A DNA stretch of 64,000 bases. Origin: Candidatus Hydrogenedentota bacterium. Its GTDB lineage: Bacteria; Hydrogenedentota; Hydrogenedentia; Hydrogenedentales; SLHB01. The notes under the pieces were generated by a model. The model was given only the letters and a program-made list of their open reading frames with translations, was not told where the DNA came from and did no database searches. The DNA is taken from contig JADLHJ010000060.1 of assembly GCA_020848835.1 (NCBI GenBank), forward strand, positions 62,001-126,000, read 5' to 3'. Below are positions 20,108 to 41,557 of this stretch, in pieces; position 1 is the stretch's first letter; each line of letters opens with the position of its first letter. The translations under genes were made by a program, and so were the position numbers.

Positions 20108-20986
20108 TTAGTCGTCCCAATCTTCTTCATCTTCGTCGTCAGTGTAGGAACCGCCTCGCGACCGGGAACTGGCAAATTGCCCGTACTCGTCCCGCTGCTG
20201 CGATTGCGAGTAGCGTTGCCCGCCGCGCCCGCGGTTTTCGTATGTACCGCGGCCACGGCCGCCGCCATTGTCTTCATCGTCATCGTCATAATCTTCGTCG
20301 TTGTAACCGCTGCGACCCTGATAGTTCTCCTCGTCATCGTCGTAGTCTTCATCCCAGTCGCGGTTCCGCCCGCTGCTGCTTCCACGCGAGCCGGTGAACT
20401 GCCCGTGTTCGTCGCGATCCTGCATCTGCGCAGAACGCTGTCCACCGCGCGAACGGACTTCATAGGAACCGCGTCCGCGATCGTCATCTTCTTCCCAATG
20501 ACCACGACCGCCGCCGTTATAACCGCTTACTTCACGGCCACGACCGCCACTGCTGTACCCGCGTTCTTCACTGCGGCCACGACCGCCGCTGCGGTTGCCA
20601 GAAAACTGTCCGTACTCGTCGCGTTCCTGCATCTGCGCCGAATGTTCGCCGCTTCGAGAACGGCCTTCATACGATCCGCGTTCACCACTGCGGCCACCGC
20701 CGCGCTGTCCGCCACCGTTTCCACTGGAACCTCCTGAACGATTGCCGCTGCGCCCGCTCATTTGGCGGCTTTGACCCTGGCGCCCGCCTTGACCACCTTG
20801 GCCGCCACTGCCACTGCGCGAACTGCTTCGGCTTCCGCCGCGTTCCTCATGTCCCACGAAATGGCCCATTTCGTCTCGCTCTTGGCTGCGGGCCGAATTG
20901 CGGCCACCCCGCGCCCGGTCTTCGGAGGATAAATTGCTTGTGCGTCCGGCCCCCTGCCGACCTTTGCCTCGTGATTGCGTTGGCAT
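20108..20986 (-). CDS. Gly/Arg-rich acidic repeat protein with RDEYGQF motifs
   Basis: A 292-residue hydrophilic, low-complexity protein made mostly of Gly, Arg, Ser, Asp and Glu, with no signal peptide. Four copies of a unit end in a conserved core: RDEMGHF (38-43 region), RDEYGQF (122-128), RDEHGQF (191-197) and RDEYGQF (265-271). The last three are preceded by SYE-RSR-G-RSAQMQ-like sequence and spaced about 70 residues apart, separated by Asp/Glu-rich blocks. Its opening (SSEDRARGGRNSA) recalls the bacterial stress-induced KGG/acidophilic-repeat proteins, but no full KGG motif is seen. GGAG precedes ATG 20986. Probably disordered; RNA or DNA binding by the RGG-like parts is a guess. Confidence 0.75.
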   Translation of the reverse strand: MPTQSRGKGRQGAGRTSNLSSEDRARGGRNSARSQERDEMGHFVGHEERGGSRSSSRSGSGGQGGQGGRQGQSRQMSGRSGNRSGGSSGNGGGQRGGGRSGERGSYEGRSRSGEHSAQMQERDEYGQFSGNRSGGRGRSEERGYSSGGRGREVSGYNGGGRGHWEEDDDRGRGSYEVRSRGGQRSAQMQDRDEHGQFTGSRGSSSGRNRDWDEDYDDDEENYQGRSGYNDEDYDDDDEDNGGGRGRGTYENRGRGGQRYSQSQQRDEYGQFASSRSRGGSYTDDEDEEDWDD

Positions 20987-21295: not shown

Positions 21296-22024
21296 ATGGT
21301 AAAGTTCGAAATAGATCAGCGCGTCATTTTTTCTATGAATGGTTCTTCTTACTGCGGACGAGTGACTTCCAAGGCTCCCCGCCTCAGGCGCATCGTTACC
21401 GATTCCGGTAAGCGATTCGTTGTGCCTGTCACCAAACTCAAAGCGTCACCGGATCGCGCTCTCTTATTGGAAACGCGGCTTGATCGCAGTCTTCGATCGT
21501 CGCGCGCGCACGGGCCAATGATGCAACAATGGCTGCACACCTTCGGCGTGGAAGCGCATTATGAACGCATGCACACCATCGACGATTTCCGCCACTTTCT
21601 AAAGCAGGAGGGCCGACGCCCCGCTACCCGCTACATCCATATCATGGGGCATGGTCGCAGCAATTTAGGCCGGGGAAACGCCGTTTTGCAGCTTACGTTC
21701 GGTCGCATACGCCTGCTCGATCATCTTGATGTGTTTGCCGCACTCAACGGCAAAATAATTATCTTCTCCTGTTGCGAAATTGGCGCGGACCGTTCCGCCC
21801 TCGAATCCATCAAAGAGGCCTCCGGGGCGGCCGCAATTATCGCCTACCGAACGCCGGTCAATGATTGGTACACCAACCTCGTCGAGGTAATGCTCTACGA
21901 ACGCCTCATCAATACACGCATGACCCCTCGCTCCGCTGTCGAGACCGTTTCAAGCGCCATCCGCTCACTGGGCGTGCGCATGGAACTCGCCAAGACGCGC
22001 ATGCCGATACTGGTTTGCATCTAA
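21296..22024 (+). CDS. Small protein with caspase/CHAT-like His-Cys dyad
   Basis: A 242-residue cytoplasmic protein I do not recognise as a named family. Residues 1-52 look like a small beta domain (RVIFSMNGSSYCGRVTS ... VVPVTKLKAS). Residues 110-200 follow the pattern of clan CD peptidases: strand RYIHIM, then GHG with H119, then after a helix a strand KIIIFSCC with C159/C160, then EIGAD and AIIAYRTPVND. In CHAT, caspase and gingipain-like enzymes the His after a strand and the Cys after the next form the catalytic dyad. The protein would therefore be a compact peptidase or a dead homologue. No TPR, NACHT or effector gene is adjacent. The assignment is pattern-based. Confidence 0.6.
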   Translation: MVKFEIDQRVIFSMNGSSYCGRVTSKAPRLRRIVTDSGKRFVVPVTKLKASPDRALLLETRLDRSLRSSRAHGPMMQQWLHTFGVEAHYERMHTIDDFRHFLKQEGRRPATRYIHIMGHGRSNLGRGNAVLQLTFGRIRLLDHLDVFAALNGKIIIFSCCEIGADRSALESIKEASGAAAIIAYRTPVNDWYTNLVEVMLYERLINTRMTPRSAVETVSSAIRSLGVRMELAKTRMPILVCI

Positions 22025-36991: not shown

Positions 36992-37843
36992 CTAATGTTG
37001 TTCCGCGGGGCTCTTCGAGCCGCCGCCATGCAGGTGTTCCACCTGGTGCTGTTTCCCTTTTTTGATGAGTCCGGGGATTATATTGCCGCCGAGTCCGGGG
37101 AACATCGCGGACACCTTGGAGAGCCACGCGCGCGACCACGGCACGGCAACCTCAAGTTCCTTATTCTCCAACACCCGCGTCATGATCACATCCCCAATTT
37201 CGTTTAGATTGAGCAGCCGCGGCCCTGAAAACACCATGGCGCCCGCGTCCGTTCGCGCGCACTGCTCAACAAGCGGCGTGCGGATCGCGTCGGGGCATAC
37301 GACCGTGACATTCAATCCAAATTGATTCAATTCGTTCGCGACAGCCAAGGTGAATCCGCGAACACCATGCTTCGATGCAGCGTACACTGCAATGCCTGGA
37401 ATAGGCGCGATGCCCGCGAGCGACGCGATGTTCACGATATGCCCACGCTTGTTGGCGACCATGTGCTTTGCGGCAACCTGCGTGCCCCAGATAACACCCT
37501 TCAGGTTGATGTCGATCTGCATATCGACCTCTTTTTGCGGCTGCTCGTGGATCCATCCGCCGATCATTACGCCCGCGATATTCATAGTCACGTCGATGCT
37601 GCCAAATGCGCTGACTGCACGCGCGAAAACCTCTTCCCACGCTTCCAGCTTGCGCACGTCGAGCGTGTCCAATTTCACGCGGTCTTCAGGCCAACCCGCC
37701 TCCTTCGCGTGGCGCGCCAGCGCCTCCATATTCACGTCGGTCGCGTAAACGCGCGCGCCTTGTTTCACAAGGCGATCGGTGACATGTTGCGCGATACCGC
37801 TTGCGCAGCCGGTGATGAAATAAGTCGCGTTGCCCGTGCTCAT
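36992..37843 (-). CDS. SDR family NAD(P)-dependent oxidoreductase
   Basis: A 283-residue cytoplasmic oxidoreductase. Seen: TGCASGIA near residue 11 (glycine-rich cofactor loop; the last Gly is Ala), DVNMEAL after strand 2, LDTLDVRK, NIAGVMIGG and the catalytic YAASKHG (Tyr/Lys), preceded by the conserved Ser in NIASLAG. It may oxidise an alcohol or reduce a ketone. The start ATG 37843 overlaps the stop of the MBL-fold gene in an ATGA, so both are translated from one message. A longer frame to 37918 is less likely. The substrate is unknown. Confidence 0.92.
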   Translation of the reverse strand: MSTGNATYFITGCASGIAQHVTDRLVKQGARVYATDVNMEALARHAKEAGWPEDRVKLDTLDVRKLEAWEEVFARAVSAFGSIDVTMNIAGVMIGGWIHEQPQKEVDMQIDINLKGVIWGTQVAAKHMVANKRGHIVNIASLAGIAPIPGIAVYAASKHGVRGFTLAVANELNQFGLNVTVVCPDAIRTPLVEQCARTDAGAMVFSGPRLLNLNEIGDVIMTRVLENKELEVAVPWSRAWLSKVSAMFPGLGGNIIPGLIKKGKQHQVEHLHGGGSKSPAEQH

Positions 37844-38928
37844 TGCCTTGCCCCCTGCGGTGCGCCGAATTTCACCGGCCCAAAGGTGAATGTCGGGACG
37901 ATCCCCGGAAACATCCAATAGGCCGTAAGTTCGGACGAGTTGACCACATTATAAAAATCAGGATTGCGCTGCGAGGTCCCAGCGATCTCGCGCTCCTGAA
38001 TCATCGAAATGAATTGATCGAGTCCGCGTTCAAGCGTGTTGCTGTTGAGAATTACATCGATTCCCGAAGTCTCCGCATATTTGCGCAAACCGGGAATGCG
38101 CGACTTCCGCGGCGCGTAAGAATCCGCGCCAACGCCGTTCTCGCTCGTCACAAATAACCCCTCAGGCGTCCGTACAACGATGGAATGATTCCCTTCCGTG
38201 TGTCCAGGCGTTTGAACCAAGGCGACACCCCGACCGAGGATCACATCGTTGTCCAAGAGAACAATCTTATCTATCGACACACCCGCGATGCCCTCAGGGC
38301 AATACCATTGCTTTTGTGGTGGTAACAGCGCCTTCGTCGATTCCCACTCCTGACGCATCACCAACAGCTTTGCATTCGGAAAATACGCCGGCGTGTCCGC
38401 AGTGCCAAGCCAACGGCGGATATCCTGCGTGTGCAGATGATCGTAGGTGATGTAATCCACCTGCTCCGGCAAAATGCCGACCTGCGCCAGCGACGACTCA
38501 ACCGTCCCGAGTTCCGGCGCCATGAGTGGTTGAAGCTGATCCTTTAGCGCACCGAAGCTCAAAGTCATCTGTTTGAAGAAAGGCGTATCCGAATTCCGCC
38601 GGTGATCTGACGGCGAAACAAGCATCGTCTTCAGTCCGTCATCGCTTTGGAATTGCACGACGAACACCCGATTGAGGATGTGTACATACGGAATCGGCAC
38701 CGAACACGCATCCTTCAGCGCGTAGCGTCGCGGATAGGGCACACGGACCAAATCAAACGATTGATAGTAGGGGACAGGCTCATGCGCCAGCAGTTCTTCG
38801 CGGAACGGTTTGCAAGCCTCAACGATTGCATTGAGACGATCCTGCGGCGCGGCGTGTTCACGCGCGCCCGAAAAATGCTCGCAGGTTTGAATGACCGGAT
38901 CGTCGTAGCCCGTCGTCACGATAGCCAT
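37840..38928 (-). CDS. MBL-fold metallo-hydrolase-like protein
   Basis: A 362-residue protein with metallo-beta-lactamase-fold features: YDHLHTQD with H164, H166 and D169 in place of HxHxDH, TPGHTEGNH (H243) as the second metal site, and LFVTSENGVGAD (about 258-269) as the third. The N-terminal part (about 80-130) has strands VHILNRVFVVQF and MLVSPSD typical of the fold. Such enzymes hydrolyse esters, lactones or phosphodiesters. It is upstream of and coupled with an SDR gene, suggesting that a small metabolite is worked on by both. No signal peptide is seen. Confidence 0.82.
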   Translation of the reverse strand: MAIVTTGYDDPVIQTCEHFSGAREHAAPQDRLNAIVEACKPFREELLAHEPVPYYQSFDLVRVPYPRRYALKDACSVPIPYVHILNRVFVVQFQSDDGLKTMLVSPSDHRRNSDTPFFKQMTLSFGALKDQLQPLMAPELGTVESSLAQVGILPEQVDYITYDHLHTQDIRRWLGTADTPAYFPNAKLLVMRQEWESTKALLPPQKQWYCPEGIAGVSIDKIVLLDNDVILGRGVALVQTPGHTEGNHSIVVRTPEGLFVTSENGVGADSYAPRKSRIPGLRKYAETSGIDVILNSNTLERGLDQFISMIQEREIAGTSQRNPDFYNVVNSSELTAYWMFPGIVPTFTFGPVKFGAPQGARQ

Positions 38929-39000: not shown

Positions 39001-39029
39001 GTGACAAGTAGAGGTCTTGGTGGTATATT
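39001..39029 (+). promoter_or_regulatory. Promoter for mini-lipoprotein array
   Basis: GTGACA (39001-39006; five of six consensus bases), exactly 17 bases, then TATATT (39024-39029; five of six). The first mini-lipoprotein ATG is 61 bases downstream. This is one of the best sigma-70-type sites in the window. Confidence 0.65.
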
Positions 39030-39089: not shown

Positions 39090-39203
39090 ATGTTGAAGGG
39101 ATTGCGTTATGTGGCGTTGGCGGTGTTGCTTGCGATGACGGTTCTTACGGCGCAGGGTTGCCCGCGCACGTTGAACACGTCGGCGGTCGCGGAAGCGAAG
39201 TAG
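39090..39203 (+). CDS. Mini-lipoprotein 1 of tandem array (37 aa)
   Basis: A 37-residue protein: a hydrophobic signal (LKGLRYVALAVLLAMTVLTA) then QGC-PR, with a 14-residue mature peptide after cleavage (C plus PRTLNTSAVAEAK). Lipobox LTAQGC is acceptable (AQGC). AGGGAGA lies upstream of ATG 39090. First of six tandem genes with the shared core A-L...GCPR and a Ser/Glu/Ala-rich end finishing in Lys. The family is not recognised. Entericidins are similar in size and lipidation but differ in sequence. Confidence 0.75.
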   Translation: MLKGLRYVALAVLLAMTVLTAQGCPRTLNTSAVAEAK

Positions 39204-39229
39204 TTGCCGAAACATCGGGAGGGCCTGAA

Positions 39230-39355
39230 ATGAACCGTTTCATTGCACTCGTGATGCTTCTCGCAATCACTGCGATCATATCGACAGGTTGTCCGCGCTT
39301 GCGTCCGGTTGAGCGGACGCTAGCCGATATCCCTGTCGAAACGGCTGCGAAGTAG
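39230..39355 (+). CDS. Mini-lipoprotein 2 of tandem array (41 aa)
   Basis: A 41-residue protein, 26 bases after the first. The signal is MNRFIALVMLLAITAIISTGC; the mature part is 21 residues, CPR followed by LRPVERTLADIPVETAAK. GGGAGGG lies eight bases upstream of the ATG. The longer frame begun at 39047 overlaps gene 1 and lacks a signal, so ATG 39230 is preferred. Together with copies 3 and 4 it has an R-x-V-P/E segment just after the Cys. Confidence 0.75.
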   Translation: MNRFIALVMLLAITAIISTGCPRLRPVERTLADIPVETAAK

Positions 39356-39402
39356 CTGTCAACAAATCATTTTCAACCTTTACAAAAAAGGGAAAATTAA
39401 AG

Positions 39403-39525
39403 ATGATTAGGTACGTCGCGTTAGCGGTGCTGCTGTGCACAATTGCGACAACGGTAATGGGTTGTCCACGTCGCGTTCCGCTTCGCCAGGCAGTAGAAAC
39501 GTCGGTGGAATCGGTCGCGAAATAA
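39403..39525 (+). CDS. Mini-lipoprotein 3 of tandem array (40 aa)
   Basis: A 40-residue protein with signal MIRYVALAVLLCTIATTVMGC and a mature 20-residue peptide CPRRVP... ending VESVAK. It is very close to copy 4 (MGCPRRVP, VESxx end), suggesting recent duplication. AAGGGA lies about ten bases upstream of ATG 39403. Confidence 0.75.
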   Translation: MIRYVALAVLLCTIATTVMGCPRRVPLRQAVETSVESVAK

Positions 39526-39560
39526 GTCGCGGCATAACCTGTATTCAAGGAGATGTTGAG

Positions 39561-39683
39561 ATGCTTCGCATTGTCGCATTGGCATTGTTGTTGTGCGCTG
39601 TTGCAACTTCGGCGATGGGATGCCCTCGGCGGGTTCCAATCTCAAAGATAGTTGAAGCGCCCGTTGAGTCCATCAGGAATTAA
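39561..39683 (+). CDS. Mini-lipoprotein 4 of tandem array (40 aa)
   Basis: A 40-residue protein with signal MLRIVALALLLCAVATSAMGC and a mature 20-residue peptide CPRRVPISKIVEAPVESIRN. It shares MGCPRRVP and VES with copy 3. AAGGAG (39547-39552) precedes ATG 39561. It is the only copy that ends in Asn instead of Lys. Confidence 0.75.
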   Translation: MLRIVALALLLCAVATSAMGCPRRVPISKIVEAPVESIRN

Positions 39684-39750
39684 GGTCGATTCTGAACAGT
39701 ATGGCGGTGCATGTGCGCCGGCGTATTACTACAACAAAAAGGAAAACAAC

Positions 39751-39876
39751 ATGAGCTTCATGGCACGTGGAATTGCGTTGGCGTTGGCGGTGGTGGCGAT
39801 TGCGGTCTCGGCGCAGGGTTGTCCGCGCGTGCCGAAGTCGGGTGGGTTCACGGCTTCCCACGCGGAATCGAAGTAA
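39751..39876 (+). CDS. Mini-lipoprotein 5 of tandem array (41 aa)
   Basis: A 41-residue protein with signal MSFMARGIALALAVVAIAVS then AQGC and a mature 18-residue peptide (CPRVPKSGGFTASHAESK). It is closest to copy 6: the shared IALALAVVAIA and GFTAS. AAAAAGGAAAA precedes the ATG. The spacer before it contains GTGCGCCGGC (39713-39722), repeated before copy 6. Confidence 0.75.
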   Translation: MSFMARGIALALAVVAIAVSAQGCPRVPKSGGFTASHAESK

Positions 39877-39894
39877 CTCAGTTTTCTGGCCTGG

Positions 39895-39918
39895 ATGCCG
39901 GCGTACGTGCGCCGGCAT
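39895..39918 (+). promoter_or_regulatory. Hairpin between mini-lipoproteins 5 and 6
   Basis: ATGCCGGCG (39895-39903) and CGCCGGCAT (39910-39918) form a perfect 9-base stem with a TACGTG loop. No U-tract follows, so it may be an mRNA-stability or attenuation element. The right arm lies within a 10-base direct repeat (GTGCGCCGGC) shared with the spacer before copy 5. Confidence 0.5.
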
Positions 39919-39947
39919 TTGTGGATAAATCGACGAAGGAGATCATG

Positions 39948-40070
39948 ATGCGTTTGATGGTACGTAGCATTGCATTGGCATTGGCTGTAGTGGCGATCGC
40001 GGCATCCGCATCGGGATGCCCACGCAAAGGCTTTACGGCTTCGCCAGTTGTCGAAAGCAACACGAAGTAG
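39948..40070 (+). CDS. Mini-lipoprotein 6 of tandem array (40 aa)
   Basis: A 40-residue protein with signal MRLMVRSIALALAVVAIAAS then ASGC and a mature 17-residue peptide (CPRKGFTASPVVESNTK). Two adjacent ATGs exist (39945 and 39948); the second has the better spacing from AAGGAG (39936-39941). It is close to copy 5 in signal and GFTAS segment. A strong terminator begins 22 bases after the stop. Confidence 0.75.
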   Translation: MRLMVRSIALALAVVAIAASASGCPRKGFTASPVVESNTK

Positions 40071-40091
40071 TTGGCTATTGATTGTTCTGTG

Positions 40092-40121
40092 AGCGCCGGG
40101 GCGCAAGTCCCGGCGCTTTTT
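40092..40121 (+). terminator. Terminator of mini-lipoprotein array
   Basis: AGCGCCGGG (40092-40100) and CCCGGCGCT (40109-40117) form a perfect 9-base stem with an 8-base loop, followed by TTTTT. It sits next to the stop codon of the convergent DUF1569 gene. Confidence 0.85.
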
Positions 40122-40578
40122 ATATTCCGAACTGTTCGAAGTGGTGTTCGAAATGCCGCGCGTGCATGAAGGTCCAGTAATCGAGCGTGAGACCTCCGAA
40201 TAGCACGTGGTTGGTTTTGCGGTTCGGTGTCGATGCAGCCGCCCGCACGAATCGTTCAAATGCAGCAGCACACTTTGCGCGTTCTTCTTCGAATTCAGCC
40301 GTCGATTCCGGCGTGAATTCCGATGGAGCCTTAATCTTGCCTTTGGGCCAACTCGGCAAAACGTGAAACGCAAGCACGCGCAAGATATTTCGCGAGTACC
40401 ACGTGCTTCGATCCTGAAATGCAGTTTCTTCCAATGACATCTCGATTAAGAGACGTAAGTGAATGAGCAGGCGAGTGGAGGAGAGGCTACCCCATCTGGG
40501 CGCCGTATCCGATGTGAGCCTTTCGATGCGTGAAATAAAGATCGGAAGGTTATCACTGGTAAGCCGCGCCAAGGCCAT
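40120..40578 (-). CDS. DUF1569 family (DinB-like) protein
   Basis: A 152-residue helical protein. The DUF1569 pattern is seen in the N-terminal MALARLTSDNLPIFISRIERL, LIHLRLLIEMSLEE and the family's C-terminal end HARHFEHHFEQFGI. DinB-superfamily members are four-helix bundles that often bind metal through His; conserved His residues here are in MHARHFEHH. The function is unknown. ATG 40578 is chosen because GGGGGGA lies seven bases upstream; 40596 would overlap that site. It follows the HesB gene by 26 bases. Confidence 0.82.
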   Translation of the reverse strand: MALARLTSDNLPIFISRIERLTSDTAPRWGSLSSTRLLIHLRLLIEMSLEETAFQDRSTWYSRNILRVLAFHVLPSWPKGKIKAPSEFTPESTAEFEEERAKCAAAFERFVRAAASTPNRKTNHVLFGGLTLDYWTFMHARHFEHHFEQFGI

Positions 40579-40604
40579 GAAACATCCCCCCGACAACAGT
40601 TTCG

Positions 40605-40978: not shown

Positions 40979-41464
40979 CTATGCCTTCGCCGGTTCAGCA
41001 GGTTTCATCAGGCCTTCGAGTACCTCTATCAACATGTCACCGTCCACACCGTAGCCGGCGCAGACTTGACCGATAGTTTCATACTGATTGATGCCGCAGT
41101 GCGAGCACCCCCCGAGGTGGAACGCCGCGAACACCTCGCCTACGCGAGGGTGAAGCCCCATTGCCTCGCCAATCGTCATATCGAGGCTAAAATAAGAAAC
41201 ACCGTGTTCGCCGCTGTGCTCGAAATCCGCAACCTCTTTAATGTGCTCATCCGACCAGTGGCTGTTGAACTCTTCCACGGATGATTTCGTCATGTACGCC
41301 ATGTTCGTCATCTTCTTCACGAGCGGGTTCGGCACGCAGTCCACCTCACCCGTCGCGGGTATGACGGTCATCTGGCGCTGGATGGCGAAGGTATCGTCAC
41401 ATTCGTAGTACACCCAGGCGTCGCCCTTGCCGGGAACGGGCTGGCTGATCTTGTAATAAAGCAT
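40979..41464 (-). CDS. DUF1858-domain protein with unknown N terminus
   Basis: A 161-residue cytoplasmic protein. The C terminus (about 92-152) is a DUF1858-type domain: SLDMTIGEAMGLHPRVGEVF, then GGCSHCGIN with a CxxC, then TIGQVCAGYGVDGDMLIEVL. This domain is found in disulfide-reductase-like and ScdA/RIC iron-sulfur repair proteins. The first 90 residues (MLYYKISQPVPGKGDAWVYY ... VIPATGEVDCVPNP) are unfamiliar. GAGGAG precedes ATG 41464; a frame to 41545 exists but lacks the site. Encoded before HesB, so a role in iron-sulfur or redox handling is plausible. Confidence 0.8.
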   Translation of the reverse strand: MLYYKISQPVPGKGDAWVYYECDDTFAIQRQMTVIPATGEVDCVPNPLVKKMTNMAYMTKSSVEEFNSHWSDEHIKEVADFEHSGEHGVSYFSLDMTIGEAMGLHPRVGEVFAAFHLGGCSHCGINQYETIGQVCAGYGVDGDMLIEVLEGLMKPAEPAKA

Positions 41465-41557
41465 GCGAAATCTCCTCGCAAACAGGGATCGAAAGACGCG
41501 TGAATGCGTGTCCGTCCCCAATTGAACACCGCAGGAGTTTAGCATATTTCGCGGAAG

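What the first reader, a model, noticed from the sequence alone, without database searches (positions are those of the whole stretch)
39090..40070. Tandem array of six mini-lipoprotein genes with a GCPR lipobox
Six consecutive short genes (37, 41, 40, 40, 41 and 40 residues) each have a signal peptide ending in GCPR and a mature peptide of only 14-21 residues, often Ser/Glu-rich at the end. Copies 3 and 4, and copies 5 and 6, form close pairs, so the array grew by duplication. All have sensible Shine-Dalgarno sites, with a strong promoter before and a strong terminator after. I know no family with this pattern; entericidins are the nearest in size. The mature peptides would be displayed on the membrane, perhaps as a variable surface or toxin-like set.
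Basis: partly seen in the sequence, partly recalled or inferred. Interest (0 to 1): 0.88.

Follow-up and report, generated by a model that had tools for sequence, protein, structure and literature searches.

The report
Six-gene mini-lipoprotein array, envelope operon
An uncultured bacterium (phylum Hydrogenedentota) carries one small operon of six related genes, each predicted to make a tiny fat-anchored positively charged peptide of 14-21 residues; smaller versions sit at the same chromosomal spot in two relatives, so it is a real, previously undescribed gene family of unknown job, most likely a part of the cell envelope.

Summary
Six same-strand ORFs (37, 41, 40, 40, 41, 40 aa) each carry a lipoprotein signal peptide ending G|CPR. 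No 1-kb stretch of shuffled window holds more than one such ORF. They lie between a sigma70-type promoter (39001-39029) and a strong terminator (40091-40118). Arrays of two and three homologues occupy the same gap, between the same two genes, in a same-genus and a same-family genome, with the same promoter (GTGACA-17-TAnTnT, TGn) and a terminator. GCPR is invariant in all 11 peptides although its codons vary freely, and synonymous change exceeds non-synonymous change in the signal peptides (clearly) and the mature tails (modestly). No Pfam, NCBIfam, PHROGs, PADLOC, PDB or Rfam match. The strict family was found in 3 of 68 genomes of the phylum. All 11 mature peptides are net cationic (+1 to +3), not amphipathic, and mostly end in Lys/Arg. 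This argues against an entericidin-like lytic toxin and against a diversifying surface set. My best reading is a housekeeping set of minimal cationic envelope lipopeptides, multiplied for dosage; location, binding partner and function are inferred. It is a new variant of a known kind (small bacterial lipoproteins), of moderate interest.

The parts
39001..39029 (+). promoter GTGACA-17-TATATT with TG before the -10; counterparts GTGACA-17-TATTAT (L046) and GTGACA-17-TACTAT (L047)
   Evidence: sequences
39090..39203 (+). gene 1, 37 aa MLKGLRYVALAVLLAMTVLTAQG|CPRTLNTSAVAEAK; likely orthologue of L046 11144-11013(-) by position and sequence
39230..39355 (+). gene 2, 41 aa MNRFIALVMLLAITAIISTG|CPRLRPVERTLADIPVETAAK
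39403..39525 (+). gene 3, 40 aa MIRYVALAVLLCTIATTVMG|CPRRVPLRQAVETSVESVAK; pair with gene 4
39561..39683 (+). gene 4, 40 aa MLRIVALALLLCAVATSAMG|CPRRVPISKIVEAPVESIRN
39698..39727 (+). GC-rich hairpin in the spacer before gene 5; part of a 33-nt repeat shared with the spacer before gene 6; no T run follows
39751..39876 (+). gene 5, 41 aa MSFMARGIALALAVVAIAVSAQG|CPRVPKSGGFTASHAESK; pair with gene 6
39893..39920 (+). GC-rich hairpin in the spacer before gene 6 (possible remnant of a duplicated terminator or an mRNA processing/attenuation element)
39948..40070 (+). gene 6, 40 aa MRLMVRSIALALAVVAIAASASG|CPRKGFTASPVVESNTK (alternative start 39945); orthologue of L046 10819-10694(-)
40091..40118 (+). 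intrinsic terminator, 12-bp stem plus T run; counterparts end the arrays in L046 and L047
37840..38928 (-). upstream syntenic neighbour: 362-aa metallo-beta-lactamase-fold, lactonase-like hydrolase, divergently transcribed (anchor, not part of the operon)
40120..40596 (-). downstream syntenic neighbour: DUF1569 protein, convergent (anchor, not part of the operon)

Best explanation
The six genes form one constitutive-looking operon that makes minimal lipoproteins. Each precursor is exported by Sec, lipidated on the invariant Cys and cut by signal peptidase II, leaving an acylated cationic peptide of 14-21 residues starting Cys-Pro-Arg and usually ending in Lys or Arg. I propose that these lipopeptides sit in the cell envelope as abundant small structural components. 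The acyl chains would anchor them in a membrane, and the Arg at +3 and the basic C-terminus would bind anionic envelope material (LPS, phospholipid or peptidoglycan). Tandem duplication raised dosage and allowed mild specialisation, with the terminal gene kept as a distinct class. Shown: ORFs, lipobox rule, operon signals, synteny, purifying selection, charge. Inferred: lipidation, membrane, partner, role and dosage.
For: Six lipobox ORFs in 1 kb against at most one per kb in shuffles. Conserved arrays in the same gap in L046 (2 copies) and L047 (3 copies). Conserved sigma70-type promoter with the same -35 GTGACA and 17-nt spacer in all three, and a terminator in all three, with no regulator in the unit. 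GCPR invariant in 11 of 11 peptides with four Gly, two Cys, three Pro and three Arg codons in use. dN<dS: signal p about 1e-5, mature tail beyond CPR p 0.05 or 0.008 depending on the pairs pooled. Mature net charge +1 to +3 in all 11. C-terminal Lys in 7 of 11 and Lys/Arg in 9 of 11, against about 12% and 21% of ORFs in the genome. LolA-like protein present in two of the three genomes and L,D-transpeptidases in all three.
Against: No transcript, peptide or lipidation data. Position -3 of the lipobox is Ala/Ser/Val rather than the preferred Leu, so processing by signal peptidase I or poor processing is possible. C-terminal Lys is not universal (Arg, Gln and Asn occur). The family is absent or unrecognised in most of the phylum, so it is not an essential envelope part of the group. 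The paralogues are not independent, so the C-terminal binomial figures overstate significance. The mature-tail selection signal is modest and rests on protein-guided alignments.
Confidence: 0.45

Rival explanations
1. Entericidin-like bacteriolytic lipopeptides with self-antidote paralogues: some copies damage the membrane and others neutralise them.
For: Entericidins are also tandem paralogous mini-lipoproteins; ecnA is reported as antidote to the toxin ecnB (PMC5105897, PMC7296081). Small size and positive charge fit.
Against: No Entericidin (PF08085) match for any of the 11 peptides at E<=1. Mature tails show no helical amphipathicity beyond shuffles (fractions 0.13-0.85) and contain 1-4 Pro/Gly each. 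Promoter looks housekeeping. Even a true entericidin homologue, Atu8019, was not lytic (PMC7296081).
Confidence: 0.12
2. Accessory lipopeptides of an outer-membrane machine, acting like LptM: the acylated N-terminus docks into a translocon or assembly complex, with several paralogues for several clients.
For: Strongest constraint is at the N-terminus of the mature protein (Cys-Pro-Arg), with looser tails. LptM is a short lipoprotein with a conserved N-terminal motif (PMC10567701).
Against: No LptM (PF13627) match. CPR also occurs in unrelated larger lipoproteins of this genome, so it may be a general sorting/lipobox flavour. No linked machine gene.
Confidence: 0.15
3. Short Braun-type tethers: the C-terminal Lys is joined to peptidoglycan by L,D-transpeptidases.
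For: C-terminal Lys in 7 of 11 peptides, and the last gene of each array always ends in Thr-Lys. Three to four L,D-transpeptidase genes in each genome.
Against: No Pfam match to the LPP family. Four of 11 lack the Lys. 14-21 residues is very short to reach peptidoglycan from the outer membrane.
Confidence: 0.1
4. Signal or secreted peptides: the precursors release free peptides (mature or signal-peptide derived) used for communication.
For: Very short products; tandem variants; the neighbouring hydrolase resembles quorum-quenching lactonases, though well below their cut-offs.
Against: Invariant Cys in a lipobox argues for anchoring; no receptor, protease or transporter in the unit; the neighbour is divergently transcribed and occurs widely without the array.
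Confidence: 0.08
5. Surface-variation cassette set.
For: Copy number differs between relatives (6, 2, 3) and tails differ between copies.
Against: dN<dS in signal and tail; no recombination sites or silent copies; single shared promoter.
Confidence: 0.06
6. Chance ORFs.
For: Short ORFs are easy to over-call; an antisense frame of 214 aa is open across genes 5-6.
Against: Homologous frames at the same spot in two other genomes; codon-level constraint; conserved promoter and terminator.
Confidence: 0.02

Closest known systems
Entericidin A/B (EcnAB, PF08085)
   Same: Tandem, paralogous, very small lipoproteins from one locus; similar precursor length.
   Different: No profile match; no amphipathic helix; 2-6 copies; mature part 14-21 residues (Atu8019, an EcnB homologue, has 32).
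LptM (YifL, PF13627)
   Same: Short lipoprotein whose conserved part is the mature N-terminus.
   Different: No profile match; Cys-Pro-Arg motif; tandem array; no disulfide-maturation partner seen.
Braun lipoprotein Lpp
   Same: Small lipoprotein, C-terminal Lys in most copies.
   Different: No profile match; far too short for the trimeric coiled coil; Lys not universal.
Tandem lipoprotein clusters of Staphylococcus aureus (csa1, PMC7360770)
   Same: Tandem lipoprotein paralogues whose copy number varies by duplication and deletion.
   Different: From general knowledge: full-size lipoproteins of a single-membrane Gram-positive species; unrelated sequence.

Membership tests
Bacterial lipoproteins (prolipoprotein rule, PS51257-like) | K/R in the first residues, hydrophobic stretch, lipobox, Cys at 15-35 | tested here: met
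   All six window copies pass the rule
Bacterial lipoproteins (prolipoprotein rule, PS51257-like) | Actual lipidation and signal peptidase II cleavage | not testable with these tools
   Needs labelling or mass spectrometry
Entericidin | Match to PF08085 | tested here: not met
   No hit at E<=1 for any of 11 members
Entericidin | Amphipathic helical mature peptide | tested here: not met
   Helical moment not above shuffles in any member
Entericidin | Bacteriolysis on overexpression | not testable with these tools
   Needs expression in a laboratory strain
LptM | Match to PF13627 | tested here: not met
   No hit at E<=1
Braun lipoprotein | Match to the Pfam LPP family | tested here: not met
   No hit at E<=1
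Braun lipoprotein | C-terminal Lys | tested here: inconclusive
   7 of 11 peptides
Braun lipoprotein | L,D-transpeptidase available | tested here: met
   YkuD matches: 4, 4 and 3 in the three genomes
Phage or defence peptide | Match to PHROGs or PADLOC profiles | tested here: not met
   Only weak PHROGs hits (best E 0.11); no PADLOC hit

The most novel reading that the evidence does not exclude
The array makes the shortest known covalent membrane-to-wall tethers: a set of 14-21-residue lipopeptides whose C-terminal Lys is attached to peptidoglycan by L,D-transpeptidases, with the Arg/Gln/Asn-ended copies as free partners.
Probability: 0.08. Interest if true: 0.78.

Novelty: new variant of a known kind. 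Interest (0 to 1): 0.5.

Why it matters
Mini-lipoproteins of this size are usually missed by annotation, and few have a known job. A syntenic array conserved across two genera of an uncultured phylum gives a clean, constraint-tested family for asking what the smallest useful lipoprotein is and why a cell would keep six. It also points to a lineage habit of Pro at +2 of lipoproteins, which bears on how sorting rules differ outside Proteobacteria.

Tried and rejected
Scan of genome contigs with the flanking hydrolase: 80 loci in many phyla; a lipobox-Cys-Pro scan found no array within the flanks held. Second hydrolase copy in G008 and the G024 copy: no array beside them. Hits in G024 (308-aa frame) and G059 were not array members; the first is a large lipoprotein sharing only the GCPR signal region. 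Profile search of 294 genomes of another phylum (centred on L070's genome, a Planctomycetota MAG) and 12 genomes carrying the hydrolase found nothing, but few candidates per genome were scored, so this is weak evidence. Viral scan not possible, alignment too variable. Promoter pattern search across the window was uninformative. Rfam: nothing. Structure prediction was not run: 40-residue peptides of this composition would not give a useful model. Literature: no report of this family found.

Full report
What is there. The stretch 39090-40070 holds six same-strand ORFs of 37, 41, 40, 40, 41 and 40 residues. Each has a short basic N-terminus, a hydrophobic core, G|C at the end of the signal peptide, and Pro-Arg after the Cys. 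The six pass a PROSITE-style lipoprotein rule; only three other ORFs of 30-60 aa in the 64-kb window do, scattered. Twenty Markov-1 shuffles of the window averaged 2.9 such ORFs and never had more than one in a kilobase. In 864 kb sampled from the same genome no second cluster was seen.

Where it lies. The nearest named genome in a scan with the flanking protein is a Candidatus Hydrogenedentota MAG (L048); its sequence coincides with a locus of G024, which the genome search places in the window's own family. The array occupies the gap between a divergent metallo-beta-lactamase-fold, lactonase-like hydrolase (38928-37840) and a convergent DUF1569 gene (40596-40120).

Relatives. A profile of the six found homologues in a same-genus genome (G001) and a same-family genome (G008). 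Both lie in exactly the same gap between the same two genes, in the same relative orientation: two copies in L046 (11144-11013 and 10819-10694, minus strand) and three in L047 (1896/1908-2024, 2084-2203, 2244-2363). With an 11-row profile, convincing members were found in only these 3 of 25 family genomes and 3 of 68 genomes of the phylum. The terminal gene 6 groups with the terminal gene of G001 (95/89 support) with gene 5 outside them (100/98), so the gene 5/6 duplication may predate the split of the two species; the tree has long branches and is only a guide.

Transcription unit. Upstream of all three arrays is GTGACA, 17 nt, TATATT/TATTAT/TACTAT with TG before the -10. All three end in a GC-rich hairpin followed by T-rich sequence. 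In the window, spacers before genes 5 and 6 share a 33-nt repeat that folds into a GC-rich hairpin without a T run; this looks like a terminator duplicated with the gene and then worn down, or a processing element (inference).

Selection. The GCPR tetrapeptide is identical in 11 of 11 peptides while its codons vary. Pooled over close pairs, the proportion of synonymous against non-synonymous change is 0.56 v 0.22 (signal, p about 1e-5) and 0.56 v 0.35 (mature tail without CPR, p 0.05); another choice of pairs gives 0.62 v 0.29 and 0.61 v 0.33 (p 4e-5 and 0.008). So the peptides are under purifying selection, the tails less strictly than the signal.

Chemistry. Mature peptides are 14-21 residues, net charge +1 to +3 in every one, and 9 of 11 end in Lys or Arg against about 21% of ORFs (paralogues are not independent). 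None shows a helical hydrophobic moment above its own shuffles. GCPR is partly a habit of the lineage: Pro is the commonest +2 residue among 23 lipoproteins found in 864 kb (6, one of them gene 2), and two larger ones have Cys-Pro-Arg; large lipoproteins of relatives have it too. In E. coli some +2 residues change membrane sorting, but the rule differs between species (PMC6469965), so location cannot be read from Pro here.

Known families. No match in NCBIfam (six window copies), PHROGs, PADLOC, PDB sequences or Rfam beyond chance-level scores. In Pfam the only relevant hit is one member at E 0.14 to LPAM_1, the generic lipoprotein attachment motif; Entericidin, LptM and Lpp do not match. Works-like candidates are entericidins, LptM and Lpp; it is a tested member of none.

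Mechanism. Best supported: an operon of minimal cationic lipopeptides acting as small envelope components, multiplied for dosage (0.45). A LolA-like protein (two of three genomes) and L,D-transpeptidases (three of three) are present, so outer-membrane delivery and wall linkage are possible, not shown. A useful precedent for a non-toxic role is Atu8019, an entericidin-like small lipoprotein that is surface exposed, not lytic, and helps vesicle docking (PMC7296081). Rivals and their tests are listed in the fields.

Verdict. The array is real, conserved and undescribed in the sources searched; the function is open. It is a new variant of a known kind rather than a new category.

Noticed in passing
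37840-38928 (-) and L046, L047, L049-L127: 362-aa metallo-beta-lactamase-fold protein distantly like AHL lactonases (below their cut-offs, no Pfam hit) found in scattered bacteria of many phyla at 50-89% identity; function unknown.
   Followed up: partly
20108-20986 (-): Low-complexity Gly/Arg/Ser/Glu-rich ORF with repeated 'RDE-x-GQF' units, possibly a stress-type repeat protein.
   Followed up: no
39693-39727 and 39884-39920: Two related GC-rich hairpins in the spacers before genes 5 and 6, resembling the array's terminator without the T run.
   Followed up: partly
window and G000 stretches L163-L182, L205-L224: Pro is the commonest +2 residue of predicted lipoproteins (6 of 23); Asp, the E. 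coli inner-membrane signal, was not seen among the +2 residues listed.
   Followed up: partly
21296-22024 (+): 242-aa protein that looks by eye like a CHAT/caspase-like domain (SCCEIG motif), standing alone.
   Followed up: no
40979-41545 (-): Protein with a C-terminal hybrid-cluster-protein-associated redox disulfide domain (TIGR03980) beside an IscA/HesB-type Fe-S assembly gene; the pair is kept in the same-genus relative beside SUF genes.
   Followed up: partly
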